Assembly: GCF_016722785.1 (NCBI RefSeq)
Contig: NZ_JAEQNE010000001.1
Span: 558,001-622,000, forward strand
Reading direction: 5' to 3'
Source: Ramlibacter monticola
GTDB taxonomy: Bacteria; Pseudomonadota; Gammaproteobacteria; Burkholderiales; Burkholderiaceae_C
Length of the DNA stretch: 64,000 nt
Below are positions 28,271 to 32,162 of this stretch, piece by piece. The notes under the pieces were generated by a model that saw nothing but the letters and a program-made list of their open reading frames with translations, made no database searches and was not told the DNA's origin. Each line of letters begins with the position of its first letter. Within the stretch, counting starts at the first letter, position 1. A program made the position numbers and the translations under genes.

Positions 28271-28298
28271 CGTCATCCCCGCGCAGGCGGGAATCCAG
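28271..28298. repeat. REP-like palindrome, left copy
   Basis: Begins CGTCATCCC and contains a CCCGC/GCGGG hairpin. Such CGTCATYCCCGCG elements are dispersed in proteobacterial genomes. A related copy lies in inverted orientation at 28761-28786, bracketing the intergenic region. Confidence 0.6.
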
Positions 28299-28523: not shown

Positions 28524-28655
28524 GCAGGACCAGAGCGGGGCTGTCCGGCTCGGCGACATAAAGGAGGAGGCGCGGGCGCCGCGCTCACCCGGGGCGCGGT
28601 TCTCATCCGCGCCGGGGGACAGTCGCAGAGACGGACAGCCCCGCTCTGGTCCGGC
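28524..28655. repeat. Long inverted repeat (about 34-nt arms, 64-nt loop)
   Basis: Arm 28524-28557 pairs with 28622-28655 with three mismatches; the outer 21 bases from 28527 (starting GGACCAGAGCGGGG) are perfect. The loop contains a second GC hairpin (GGCGCGG/CCGCGCC). I see no exact target-site duplication at the edges. As RNA it would fold into one very stable stem-loop of about 130 nt. Confidence 0.9.
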
Positions 28656-28793: not shown

Positions 28794-31700
28794 TCAGGCC
28801 TTCGCCACGGCGAGCGGAGGAACCTCGGCCCGCACGGCGATCGGCGGCAGGACGGCCACCGGCGCCACCGGCTGCGGCGGCGCCTCGCCCGCATCCAGGT
28901 CCCCGACGATCTGCAGGAACACGTCCACATCCCCCGCGCTCGGCGCCCCGCCCGACGCCACCGGCTGCAGCATCGCCTTGCGGACTTCAGCCTGCGGCCG
29001 CCCGCGCGCCATCATCCAGCGCGCGCTCAGTTCCACCAGCCGCGCCTCGGACACCGGCGCGGTGTCCCCCTTGCGCAGGCGCGCGACGGCGTAGCGGCTG
29101 ATGTTCAGGAAGCGCTTCAGCTCGCGCGGGCTGGCCGTCTCCTGCTGCGCCAGCAACTGCGCCTGCCAGGCCTGCACGGCGGCGCGGTATTCCGGGGTGG
29201 CGTGCACCCGGTACTCCTCGCGCCGGGCCCAGCCCCAGGCGAGCACGGCGAGCACGACCGCCACCGTCAGTCCGGCGGGCCACCAGACGGTGTCGCCCAC
29301 CGGCGCGTCCGGGGCCGCGGCGCCTCCGGGGCTGGCCGCATCGGCGTTGCCGGCGCCCTTGTCGCCGCCCGCCGTGCCCTTGCGCTCGCTGCGCCCGGGC
29401 CAGTCCTCGCCATCCGGCTGGCCACCGGCGATCAGCGCCCGCGCATTCGCCGCCGCCGGTTCGAAGCGCGTCTTGCGGATGCTGTCGAAACGGTCCGGCG
29501 CGCCGCTGGCGACTTCCGCCTCCAGCAGCACCAGCGCCTGCTCCATGCCCTTGACGCCGGCCTCGACCGCATCGGCCCGGGCCAGCAGGCTCGCCACCAC
29601 CTCCGGCGGTGCCGCGGCGGCCTTGCCTTTCAGCCGCACCCAGTGCTCGTAGGCGCGGGCGTCCTCCAGCTGCGCGCGCACCGCCTGGATGTCGCGTCCG
29701 AGCTGTTCGCGCGCCTGCCGCGTCTCCAGTTTCATGCGGGCGACGGTGTCGTCCATCTGCCAGAGCAGGCCGAAGACGACCAGCAGCGCGGCGATCCATC
29801 CGGCCGCCGCGGCGATGCGGGGACGCGCCGCTTCCACCCCTTCCCTTGCCGCCCGCAAGGCTCCGCGCAGGCCCGGCGCGCGCTTGTGCTCCGAGCTGGC
29901 GCCGTCTCCGCCCGGCTCCGGACCGAGCAGCATGTCGAGCGCGCAGGCGGATTCGAGCGTCGGCAGCTTCACGTCCAGCTGCACCAGCTTGCGCAGGTAG
30001 ACGCGCGCATAGGCGAGCCGGTCGACGACCGCCTGCGACTCGCGCGCGACCGGGTCGCGGTCCGGCTGCTGCCCCTGTTCGGCCCGCCGGATCGCCGCCT
30101 GCTCCTCGGCCAGCGCCTTGTGTGCGCTCGCGATCTGCGCCTCCACGATGCGGCGGTCGGTGCCGAGGATGACGAAGCACGGACCGGCTTCGCACAGGTA
30201 GTTCACGCATTCGAGCAGTTCCGCGGCCTTGGGCGGGCTGCAGCGGTCGAGGTCGTCGATGAAGATCGTCATCGTGCGGGCGCCGAGCGCGCGCGCCACC
30301 TCGCCGAAGTGCGTGCGGAAGCGGCGGCGGAAGTCGGTCTGCGCCTCGGCCTGCGTCACCGTGAACTTCGTCCCGAGGCTGGACAGCAGCACCGCCGGCT
30401 TCGCCGGGAAGGGCCGCAGCAGGAACATGCACAGCATCGCCCAGCACGCGGCGAGGAACACGACGCCCAGCGCGATCAGCGTCGTCACCGGATCCTGCTG
30501 GATGGCGCGCAGCGCTGCGCCCAGCAGGTCCAGGGGCCCGCCGCCCGCGGCGGTGGCGAGCCAAGGCCCCACCGTCACGTGGGTGAAGACGGAATAGACG
30601 TCGCGGAAGAAGCCGTCCGCCAGCGCCGGCGGCGCGGCGGAATGCACCCGCGCGCCCAGGCAGGCGAGATAGGCCGGCACGGACAGCAGCGCCACCCATC
30701 CCATGCGCGTGGCCCAGCCCCCGCGGCGCCAGCGCTCCACCACCAGGCGGGCCCGGAACGCGAGGCCGTGCCAGCTGAAGAAGCGCGGGATCGCCTGCTG
30801 CGTGATGGCCTGCAGCAGGGGCGCCAGCAGCACCTCCTCGTGCTGGTGGTGCCAGGCGTTGAACCAGACCGGCCGCGCGCCGCGCCCGTGCAACTCGCCC
30901 GCCAGCATCGCCATGAAGCTGCTCTTGCCCATGCCCCAGCGCGCATTGATCGCGATCGCGAGCGGCGGCTGCGTGCCGCTGTGGCGCAGGAAGCGGCTGA
31001 GGGCTTCCACCACCGGCCGGAAGGCGAGGCGGTCCTGGGCCGCATCGGCGATCGGTGCGTCGGAAACCGCCTGCTCCAGCACGCCGGCGCTCGTCACCGC
31101 GGCCCGGCGCGCGACCAGCCGCTCGCGCGCCGTCCCGAGGGCCGCCAGCGCGAAGAAGGCGAGCACGGCCCACAGCCAGGGCGCCGGCGACTTGCGCCAG
31201 GCGGGCTCCTGCCAGGCGTTGCGCGCCAGGTCGCCGCGCACGATGGTGCGGTCGGCCAGCGCCAGCACGACGCCGCCATCGGGCAGGACGGCCAGCGCCT
31301 TGAGCGTCTGGCCCGGGCGGCGGCGCAGTTCTTCCCAATGGCGGCCGCTGTCGAGCGTGCGCAGCACGACGCCGTCGGCGCCGGCGGCGAGGGCGCTGCC
31401 CCGCGCTTCGTCGAGCCACTGCGTGGCGAGGATGCGGTAGCCCTCGGGTAGCCGCGGGGTGTTCGCCTGCGGCGGCAAGGGCCGCTGCACCGTGGCCGGC
31501 GGCGCGGCCGGCGCATTGGGCGCGGCCGGCGCATTGGGCACGGCCTGCTGCTGCACCGGCGCGCCCTTCCCCTCCGCCTTCGAGTCGGGCGCGGGCGCCT
31601 TCGAGGGGGGCCGCTGCTCCGCCTGCAGCGCGGTCGGCACGAGCTGCCGCACGAGCTGCGGCGCGGCCGCGGCCTTCTGGCGGGGCGGCTGCAGCTGGCG

Positions 31701-32126
31701 GGGCGGCTGCAGCTGGCGGCGCAGCTCCGCCGGCATCTCGTCCGCAGCCGCGACACGCCAGAGGCGCCCGCCGTCCTCGCTGAGCAGGACGAAGGCTCCG
31801 TCCGCACTCGCCGCCGCCGCCGGCCCCGTCGCATTCACCGCGACCGAAGCCAGCACCGGTCGTTGCGCACCGGCGCGCAGCCAGCGGTTCTCCTCGCGCG
31901 GCGAGAGGAAGCCTTCCCCGCTGAGCCAGGAGGGCTCCGGCGCGAGCGGATCGCCGCGTGGCGCCTGCAGCACCGCGAACGCCACGAAGAGGGCCAGCGC
32001 GACCAGCACCGCGGTGAGTCGGCCCCAGACCGGCGGCGGGGTGGCGCGCGCCGCCGCGCCGGCGCTTGGCGAGGCTCGGGGACCCGGGGACGGTGCGCCC
32101 TTGCGACGGGGAGCTTCCTGCATCAT
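28794..32126 (-). CDS. KAP-family P-loop membrane NTPase with two Asp-box repeats
   Basis: 1110-residue protein. From the N-terminus: cytosolic Pro/Arg tail; membrane helix at about 36-53; an extracytoplasmic part with two perfect Asp boxes (SEDGGRLW near 116, TLDSGRHW near 257) separated by a Pro/Gln/Ala-rich linker; helix about 316-331; KAP NTPase domain with Walker A in NARWGMGKSSF (about 394-404) and Walker B in FIDDLDRC (about 622-629); two helices inserted between them (about 474-490 and 549-570), as is typical for KAP proteins; further helices near 775-790 and 952-966; a Pro/Val-rich C-terminal tail. KAP members include PifA of plasmid F (T7 exclusion) and Kidins220. ATG 32126 follows a perfect AGGAGG seven bases upstream. 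Apparently monocistronic. Function unknown; phage defence or envelope signalling are guesses. Confidence 0.82.
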   Translation of the reverse strand: MMQEAPRRKGAPSPGPRASPSAGAAARATPPPVWGRLTAVLVALALFVAFAVLQAPRGDPLAPEPSWLSGEGFLSPREENRWLRAGAQRPVLASVAVNATGPAAAASADGAFVLLSEDGGRLWRVAAADEMPAELRRQLQPPRQLQPPRQKAAAAPQLVRQLVPTALQAEQRPPSKAPAPDSKAEGKGAPVQQQAVPNAPAAPNAPAAPPATVQRPLPPQANTPRLPEGYRILATQWLDEARGSALAAGADGVVLRTLDSGRHWEELRRRPGQTLKALAVLPDGGVVLALADRTIVRGDLARNAWQEPAWRKSPAPWLWAVLAFFALAALGTARERLVARRAAVTSAGVLEQAVSDAPIADAAQDRLAFRPVVEALSRFLRHSGTQPPLAIAINARWGMGKSSFMAMLAGELHGRGARPVWFNAWHHQHEEVLLAPLLQAITQQAIPRFFSWHGLAFRARLVVERWRRGGWATRMGWVALLSVPAYLACLGARVHSAAPPALADGFFRDVYSVFTHVTVGPWLATAAGGGPLDLLGAALRAIQQDPVTTLIALGVVFLAACWAMLCMFLLRPFPAKPAVLLSSLGTKFTVTQAEAQTDFRRRFRTHFGEVARALGARTMTIFIDDLDRCSPPKAAELLECVNYLCEAGPCFVILGTDRRIVEAQIASAHKALAEEQAAIRRAEQGQQPDRDPVARESQAVVDRLAYARVYLRKLVQLDVKLPTLESACALDMLLGPEPGGDGASSEHKRAPGLRGALRAAREGVEAARPRIAAAAGWIAALLVVFGLLWQMDDTVARMKLETRQAREQLGRDIQAVRAQLEDARAYEHWVRLKGKAAAAPPEVVASLLARADAVEAGVKGMEQALVLLEAEVASGAPDRFDSIRKTRFEPAAANARALIAGGQPDGEDWPGRSERKGTAGGDKGAGNADAASPGGAAAPDAPVGDTVWWPAGLTVAVVLAVLAWGWARREEYRVHATPEYRAAVQAWQAQLLAQQETASPRELKRFLNISRYAVARLRKGDTAPVSEARLVELSARWMMARGRPQAEVRKAMLQPVASGGAPSAGDVDVFLQIVGDLDAGEAPPQPVAPVAVLPPIAVRAEVPPLAVAKA

Positions 32127-32162
32127 GTGCGTCCCTCCTGGCAGGCTGGCGAGCGGCCATGA

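What the first reader, a model, noticed from the sequence alone, without database searches (positions are those of the whole stretch)
28794..32126. Large KAP-family membrane NTPase with extracytoplasmic Asp-box repeats
Seen: Walker A and B, two helices inserted between them as in KAP proteins, four other helices, and two perfect S/T-x-D-x-G-x-x-W Asp boxes in the region between helix 1 and helix 2. Known: KAP proteins include PifA, which excludes phage T7. Inference: a membrane sensor whose outer part reads something outside the inner membrane and whose NTPase responds inside. I know of no described protein with this domain order.
Basis: partly seen in the sequence, partly recalled or inferred. 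Interest (0 to 1): 0.62.

Follow-up and report, generated by a model that had tools for sequence, protein, structure and literature searches.

The report
Membrane NTPase with outside propeller sensor
The gene encodes a membrane protein whose inner part is an energy-using switch of a kind known from phage defence and whose outer part looks like a shrunken ring-shaped sensor; its relatives in many bacterial groups carry full seven- or fourteen-bladed rings, some with a fast-changing face, as expected of a receptor that recognises something foreign.

Summary
In detail: on the minus strand, 28794-32126 encodes a 1110-aa membrane KAP NTPase with intact Walker motifs and two Asp boxes between its first two membrane helices. 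The model puts both boxes in propeller blades. It is not a fixed core gene: 2 of 40 same-genus genomes have it, its own included. A scan returned 80 related loci from about ten phyla; 73 have Asp boxes and blade counts peak at 7 and 14. So it belongs to a widespread plan, helix-propeller-helix-KAP, for which I found no paper in the library searched. The window copy is a reduced form: three blades and a Pro/Ala/Gln linker. In repeat-rich relatives a few positions, inferred to lie on the face opposite the Asp boxes, are hypervariable, as reported for fungal HNWD receptors (PMC2873952, passages). Plasmid proteins join similar blades to a patatin domain or a STAND-like P-loop. Most likely a membrane receptor whose outer propeller reads a ligand and whose KAP domain responds inside. 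The defence role is inferred; neighbours do not support a defence island.

The parts
28794..32126 (-). whole gene, 1110 aa: TM - Asp-box blades - TM - KAP NTPase with inserted helices - TM - helical segment - TM - C-terminal domain
32134..32139 (-). AGGAGG ribosome-binding-site-like sequence, 7 bases before the ATG
   Evidence: sequence printed
31968..32030 (-). transmembrane helix 1 (residues 33-53)
   Evidence: hydropathy, helix 33-53
31749..31853 (-). blade 1 (residues 92-126), four strands
   Evidence: AF2 strands, ten-residue blocks of mean pLDDT 87-90
31758..31781 (-). Asp box 1, SEDGGRLW (residues 116-123)
31461..31739 (-). Pro/Ala/Gln-rich linker (residues 130-222), mostly disordered in the model
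   Evidence: pLDDT below 50 at 145-221; composition; 18-nt tandem duplications
31326..31433 (-). blade 2 (residues 232-267), four strands
   Evidence: blocks 70-86; blade HMM 24 bits
31335..31358 (-). Asp box 2, TLDSGRHW (residues 257-264)
31209..31304 (-). blade 3 (residues 275-306), no Asp box, four strands
   Evidence: blocks 82-88
31101..31181 (-). transmembrane helix 2 (residues 316-342), starting at the PAPW motif 314-317
30117..31019 (-). KAP_NTPase domain (residues 370-670)
   Evidence: Pfam PF07693 E=1.5e-21; RdrA fold match
30918..30944 (-). Walker A (residues 395-403)
   Evidence: W397 G398 G400 K401 S403 invariant in the 65-row alignment
30843..30866 (-). family signature WFNAWHHQ (residues 421-428)
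   Evidence: invariant
30417..30716 (-). helices inserted in the NTPase domain (residues 471-570), putative membrane hairpin
30240..30272 (-). Walker B region ending DDLDRC (residues 619-629)
   Evidence: D624 D625 D627 R628 C629 invariant
29760..29816 (-). hydrophobic helix (residues 771-789) within a long predicted helix 753-832
29211..29285 (-). last transmembrane helix (residues 948-972)
29094..29129 (-). C-terminal motif with invariant P1000 R1001 N1008 R1011

Best explanation
A single-protein membrane receptor with a switch. The outer domain, between helices 1 and 2, is a YCF48-type Asp-box propeller that binds a ligand outside the inner membrane. The signal passes through helix 2 and the helices built into the KAP domain. 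The KAP NTPase on the inner side changes nucleotide or assembly state and triggers a response at the membrane. In repeat-rich relatives one propeller face varies quickly, as in receptors that track a changing, probably foreign, ligand, so I place the family among non-self or attack-sensing systems. The window copy keeps the KAP machinery but has a reduced, three-blade outer domain split by a flexible linker. Shown here: domain order, intact NTPase motifs, blades in the model, the family, its blade-count peaks, hypervariable positions, sporadic presence. Inferred: sidedness, ligand binding, signalling across the membrane, defence role.
For: KAP domain with intact motifs. PADLOC models of defence KAP proteins match it at domain level: candidate PDC-S20 3e-20, PifA 8.8e-17, QatA 1.3e-16. 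Closest fold RdrA of the RADAR defence system, Z 14.2, rmsd 4.8 over 267 residues. Blades modelled in blocks of mean pLDDT 70-90 and matched to propellers across residues 91-308. 80 related loci, 73 with Asp boxes; peaks at 7 and 14 blades. L010 model matches YCF48 at target TM-score up to 0.75 and double propellers. Left-out hypervariable positions change more than synonymous sites in 10 of 11 arrays. Similar outer blades occur with a patatin domain or a STAND-like P-loop on plasmids. Sporadic: 2 of 40 and 2 of 100 genomes, own genome included in both. Papers describe KAP NTPases as switches in conflict systems (passages).
Against: No widely shared neighbour; PADLOC tallies of near and distant neighbours alike; no phage match and no full-length plasmid match. 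This copy has lost most of the part that makes the family look like a receptor. Only 4 of 11 arrays exceed synonymous change by more than twofold; six others lie at 1.15 to 1.88, and L008 is below 1; codon bias, which lowers synonymous change, was not corrected. The ectodomain is less alike than the KAP core in 16 of 16 pairs, but so is the C-terminal part in 15 of 15, and the ectodomain is below the C-terminal part in only 9 of 15, so faster evolution of the ectodomain in particular is not established. A KAP domain does not prove defence: QatA is largely dispensable in qatABCD (PMC12424860, passages). Helix orientation was not tested; the charge count of the N-terminus is weakly in favour.
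Confidence: 0.5

Rival explanations
1. Envelope assembly or quality-control factor: as YCF48 binds the D1 protein during photosystem assembly (recalled; structures with D1 peptide listed), the propeller holds a cell-envelope protein and the KAP NTPase drives its assembly or turnover.
For: The propeller is of YCF48 type in sequence (PSII_BNR in L010, L038, L077 and L014 of six relatives scanned) and in structure. No full-length match on the plasmids or phages searched. No defence-island signal.
Against: Rare within the genus, blade number differs between close relatives, some positions of the blade are hypervariable; none of this fits a fixed client. No widely shared neighbour gene.
Confidence: 0.25
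2. The family is a receptor, but the window copy is a decaying remnant that has lost its sensor.
For: Three blades against seven counted by eye in its sister G011 (sequence, alignment); tandem-duplicated low-complexity linker.
Against: Open frame of 1110 codons with coding signature and ribosome-binding site. Invariant NTPase and C-terminal residues kept, 55% KAP identity to G011. Remaining blades modelled with fair to good confidence. Five other relatives with short ectodomains also keep an open frame.
Confidence: 0.2
3. Chance Asp-box motifs in a disordered loop of an ordinary KAP protein.
For: The blade HMM gives only two weak hits in this copy (9 and 24 bits), and Pfam names no propeller domain in it.
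Against: None of 20,000 shuffles gave two boxes; relatives have up to 14 boxes; blades in the model.
Confidence: 0.02

Closest known systems
KAP NTPases with inserted membrane helices: Tmn, PifA, Kidins220
   Same: KAP P-loop domain with membrane helices. Tmn is described as a KAP NTPase with two unusual transmembrane domains that inhibits several phages (PMC11846954, passages).
   Different: I saw no extracytoplasmic propeller described for them (Tmn from passages, PifA and Kidins220 from recall).
QatA of qatABCD
   Same: KAP NTPase in a proven anti-phage operon (PMC12424860, passages).
   Different: NCBIfam QatA score 74.5 against a cut-off of 600; the flanking genes are rpoD and an FAD oxidase.
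KAP NTPases in conflict systems with diversified sensors
   Same: A DGR study names KAP NTPases among the NTPases of DGR-diversified putative antigen sensors (PMC10907252, passages); another paper lists KAP replacing STAND NTPases in counter-invader systems (PMC8195603, passage).
   Different: There the diversified part is a CLec domain changed by a retroelement; here it would be propeller repeats, and the sensor is predicted outside the membrane.
YCF48 / Asp-box seven-bladed propellers
   Same: 42-residue Asp-box blades; the L010 model matches YCF48 structures at target TM-score up to 0.75.
   Different: Here between two membrane helices of an NTPase protein, with 14-blade arrays; YCF48 is a stand-alone assembly factor (recalled).
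Fungal HNWD/HET-E NLR receptors
   Same: Homogenised propeller repeats, varying repeat number, diversifying selection at four positions per repeat on one propeller face (PMC2873952, passages).
   Different: Fungal ones are STAND proteins with WD40 repeats (same passages), intracellular by recall. Here Asp-box repeats, predicted outside, and a KAP switch; selection is indicated, not proven.
RdrA of RADAR
   Same: Best structural match of the KAP part, Z 14.2 over 267 residues, 12% identity.
   Different: The match covers about residues 352-742 only; I did not examine the rest of RdrA.

Membership tests
KAP P-loop NTPase family (PF07693) | profile match above the gathering score | tested here: met
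   77.3 bits against 20, E=1.5e-21, residues 370-670
KAP P-loop NTPase family (PF07693) | intact Walker A and Walker B | tested here: met
   W397 G398 G400 K401 S403 and D624 D625 D627 R628 C629
KAP P-loop NTPase family (PF07693) | helices inserted between Walker A and B (feature recalled; title of the 2004 paper seen) | tested here: met
   helices 471-497, 500-526, 546-570 in the model, one strongly hydrophobic at 550-568; membrane insertion itself not tested
QatA | NCBIfam equivalog score of 600 bits or more | tested here: not met
   74.5 bits
QatA | qatB, qatC, qatD beside it | tested here: not met
   the genes on either side are sigma-70 rpoD and an FAD oxidase; only these flanking genes and the LigB-like gene after them were identified
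PifA | match along the whole PADLOC model | tested here: inconclusive
   58.9 bits, two stretches; the best covers model positions 4-99 of 720, the other is not printed
PDC-S20 (PADLOC candidate defence family) | match along the whole PADLOC model | tested here: inconclusive
   71.2 bits, two stretches; the best covers model positions 18-96 of 464
Tmn | match to a Tmn profile | not testable with these tools
   no Tmn match among the hits; I do not know whether these libraries hold such a model
YCF48/PSII_BNR propeller (PF14870), this copy | Pfam PF14870 match | tested here: not met
   not among the families listed for P0001 at E up to 1; four of six relatives scanned do match
Asp-box propeller-KAP family named here | helix, Asp-box blades, helix, KAP core with WFNAWHHQ and DDLDRC | tested here: met
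   the tree groups it with G011, L003 and L002 at 100/98
Asp-box propeller-KAP family named here | closed ring of seven or two times seven blades | tested here: not met
   three blades only in the model; many relatives also have other counts
anti-phage defence system | reduces phage infection | not testable with these tools
   needs an experiment

The most novel reading that the evidence does not exclude
A broad bacterial family of membrane receptors carries recombining, near-identical propeller repeats outside the inner membrane, with one hypervariable recognition face under diversifying selection and a KAP switch inside: a prokaryotic, outward-facing counterpart of fungal HNWD/HET-E non-self receptors. 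The same kind of outer module is also plugged into patatin and STAND-like parts. Short forms such as the window copy would close their ring by pairing of chains.
Probability: 0.3. Interest if true: 0.86.

Novelty: new variant of a known kind. Interest (0 to 1): 0.63.

Why it matters
Most bacterial immune sensors described so far act inside the cell (recalled). A widespread NTPase family that reads the outside of the inner membrane with fast-diversifying propellers would add a surface-receptor arm. It makes two questions testable: what KAP membrane NTPases sense, and whether bacteria diversify receptors by shuffling repeats as fungi do.

Tried and rejected
Core gene fixed beside rpoD: rejected. 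2 of 40 genus genomes have the KAP core. Of 24 stretches of about 4 kb around the FAD oxidase in other genus members, 7 reach rpoD, 4 of them with a gap under 200 bases (L089, L091, L094, L095); in the other 17 I did not look further out. An earlier search at a looser cut-off gave 4 of 31 genomes, two of them with weak partial matches only.

tRNA-linked insertion: no tRNA in the window or in five loci. Conserved partner: largest neighbour cluster 12 of 81 loci, generic by my reading. Defence island: 128 nearest proteins matched 90 PADLOC families, 101 distant ones 64, at E up to 1e-8; both lists are cut at 25 families and do not give the number of proteins hit; gene choice was my own simple ORF pick and 11 loci were left out. 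Mobile elements: P0001 no match in plasmids or phages; L009 matched 58 plasmid records, none over 80%, and no phage. But a PHROG family of unknown function does match the KAP part (2.8e-16).

Fold searches: Foldseek had no match at E up to 0.001 for the P0001 model; RdrA came first at 0.004. YCF48 is not among the 50 rows, which proves nothing.

Hypervariability: positions were first seen by entropy over all arrays, so I repeated the test leaving one array out. 11 of 23 arrays had at least three unit pairs at 80% DNA identity; 12 were dropped. At the 90% cut-off 58 of 79 pairs come from L072 alone and the leading positions differ between arrays. The non-KAP arrays L117 and L118 are too diverged to test.

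Short forms: I labelled six rows short (P0001, L014, L020, L023, L027, L077) by ectodomain length. The label needs at least five changes, gains or losses, which is hardly fewer than shuffled labels (mean 5.9; 69 of 500 shuffles as low).

Rows dropped: the folding alignment used 64 of 80 loci; left out were L004, L033, L034, L040, L050, L053, L055, L056, L058, L067, L068, L069, L071, L073, L074 and L079 (duplicates, short or broken frames, N runs, or size). The tree used 75 rows; left out were L001, L004, L040, L050, L073, L074, L079 and L080. L003 and L004 are two contigs with the same sequence span, so the 80 loci hold at least one duplicate.
Full report
What is there. The frame lies on the minus strand of 28794-32126 and gives 1110 residues from an ATG preceded by AGGAGG; codon-position GC of 0.78/0.55/0.93 marks it as coding. 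Pfam finds KAP_NTPase at residues 370-670 with E=1.5e-21. Hydropathy gives helices near 37, 315, 550, 771 and 947, and two Asp boxes stand at 116 and 257; none of 20,000 shuffles of that region has two. A Pro/Ala/Gln linker at 130-222 lies between them. The gene is single in its genome.

Do the boxes make blades? AlphaFold2 on P0001 with 64 relatives gave mean pLDDT 71.8 and pTM 0.60. Three groups of four strands appear at 92-126, 232-267 and 275-306, in ten-residue blocks of mean pLDDT 70-90; 145-221 is below 50. The first two groups hold the boxes. The region aligns to propellers (GH74 xyloglucanase Z 10.4 over 161 residues; two-blade nvPizza2 proteins Z 10.1 over 81) and the KAP part to RdrA of RADAR (Z 14.2, rmsd 4.8, 267 residues, 12% identity). 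Foldseek alone found nothing at E up to 0.001, RdrA first at 0.004.

Is it a core gene? The genes on either side are rpoD (sigma-70 domains) and an FAD oxidase (DAO), then a LigB-like gene. In relatives G037, G048, G011 and G034 rpoD is followed by the FAD oxidase with under 200 bases between; the window gene sits between them, where G037 has GC-rich repeats. The KAP core is found in 2 of 40 same-genus genomes and 2 of 100 family genomes, the window's own included in both; the second family hit is a 115-residue match in G055 that I did not inspect. The other genus member, G011, has a longer homologue beyond the FAD oxidase and the LigB-like gene. The first refuting condition is not met either.

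The family. One scan of genome contigs returned 80 loci (99 candidates confirmed, best 80 kept), from ten named phyla and KSB1 by the labels in the tree. 73 of 80 have at least one box of the form [ST]xDxGxx[WFY], 65 at least two, 41 at least five. A blade HMM built from 144 of the family's own units gives peaks of 12 loci at seven blades and 12 at fourteen; the other 56 loci have other counts, some cut by contig ends. Ectodomain lengths cluster near 325-345 and 610-640 residues. Some members use other repeats: WD40 in L067, and by eye L048 and L043. In the 65-row alignment 27 columns are invariant, including Walker A, WFNAWHHQ, five of six residues of DDLDRC and four C-terminal residues.

The 14-blade model. 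The first 760 residues of L010, with 10 relatives, folded with mean pLDDT 73.0 and pTM 0.56. Foldseek puts a highly repetitive propeller protein first (2ymu, E=1.4e-15), then GH74 enzymes, with YCF48 entries at target TM-score up to 0.75. I read it as two seven-bladed rings; overall packing is uncertain (rmsd 25-28 for the double-ring matches).

Evolution. The tree of 75 KAP cores pairs P0001 with G011 (100/98), and these with L003 (Derxia) and L002 (100/98). Short ectodomains are scattered: my label needs at least five gains or losses, little fewer than shuffled labels. In 16 of 16 chosen pairs the ectodomain is less alike than the KAP core, but the C-terminal part is too in 15 of 15, so this is not special to the ectodomain. 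Between two Gallionella members the KAP core is 91% and the C-terminal part 85% identical while the ectodomain is 49% identical and has 14 blades in one, 7 in the other.

Hypervariable positions. Within arrays of similar repeats, blade positions 10, 32, 34 and 36 (11 in place of 32 once) lead when each array is left out in turn. Amino-acid change there exceeds synonymous change in 10 of 11 arrays, by more than twofold in 4; the rest of the blade stays below it in 10 of 11. From the strands of the L010 model (unit 93-134: 96-101, 105-110, 117-119, 127-132), positions 10-11 lie between strands B and C, 32-34 between D and the next A, 36 at the start of A. By strand order these are on the face opposite the Asp box; this is inference, not measured on coordinates. 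The fungal HNWD paper reports two pairs of selected codons per repeat at the top face with concerted evolution (PMC2873952, passages). Caveats: codon bias uncorrected, pairs within an array not independent, highest-identity pairs mostly from one array.

Context. No neighbour family is widely shared; PADLOC tallies for 128 near and 101 distant neighbours look alike. Plasmid hits named YCF48-related include one with Asp-box blades and a C-terminal patatin domain (L117, E=2e-9) and one with at least 11 Asp boxes followed by a P-loop GGAGKTT that I take for STAND-like; Pfam did not name it. The outer module is thus not tied to KAP.

Mechanism. Shown: anatomy, intact NTPase motifs, the family and its variation. 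Inferred: the propeller is outside, binds a ligand and drives the KAP domain through helix 2 and the inserted helices. Non-self sensing is my first choice for the family because of sporadic presence, changing blade number, hypervariable positions, the RdrA fold match, domain-level matches to PADLOC KAP models and the company of patatin and STAND-like parts. An envelope-assembly role in the manner of YCF48 is the main rival. The window copy may close a ring by pairing chains, as the designed nvPizza2 proteins do (recalled), or may be losing its sensor.

Literature. I found no paper joining KAP with YCF48, Asp boxes or a propeller in one protein; searches on the open-licence PMC library, listings seen. 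The 2004 paper that defined the KAP family is not held, so a mention there cannot be excluded. Passages seen: PMC10907252, PMC11846954, PMC8195603, PMC11237479, which mentions an AAA+ ATPase fused to propeller repeats, PMC2873952, PMC13273231, PMC12424860. PMC7159879 was searched for the whole word KAP and had none.

Noticed in passing
L049, L051, L059: In three Bradyrhizobium loci a member of this family lies 0.9-4.8 kb from rpoD and convergent with it, as in the window; two lineages only, so a shared insertion spot or chance.
   Followed up: partly
window 28271-28296 and 28524-28655: A GC-rich repeat-like sequence (one copy in the window) and a 34-nt inverted repeat lie between rpoD and the KAP gene; similar GC-rich repeats follow rpoD in relative G037.
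   Followed up: partly
window 31501-31536 and 31677-31712: Two exact 18-nt tandem duplications lie inside the linker-coding part of the gene.
   Followed up: no
L117 2722-6438; L118 2644-6444: Plasmid genes with Asp-box blades plus a patatin domain or a P-loop GGAGKTT sequence.
   Followed up: partly
L071 and L072: Two copies of the family on one Siccirubricoccus contig with 96% KAP and 59% ectodomain identity; L071 lies near the contig end and its ectodomain may be cut.
   Followed up: no
L074, L079: The family gene is split over two frames in these loci: sequencing errors or pseudogenes.
   Followed up: no
G055:C1:211267-211608: The only other family-level hit, 45% over 115 residues within a 1238-residue open frame.
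   Followed up: no
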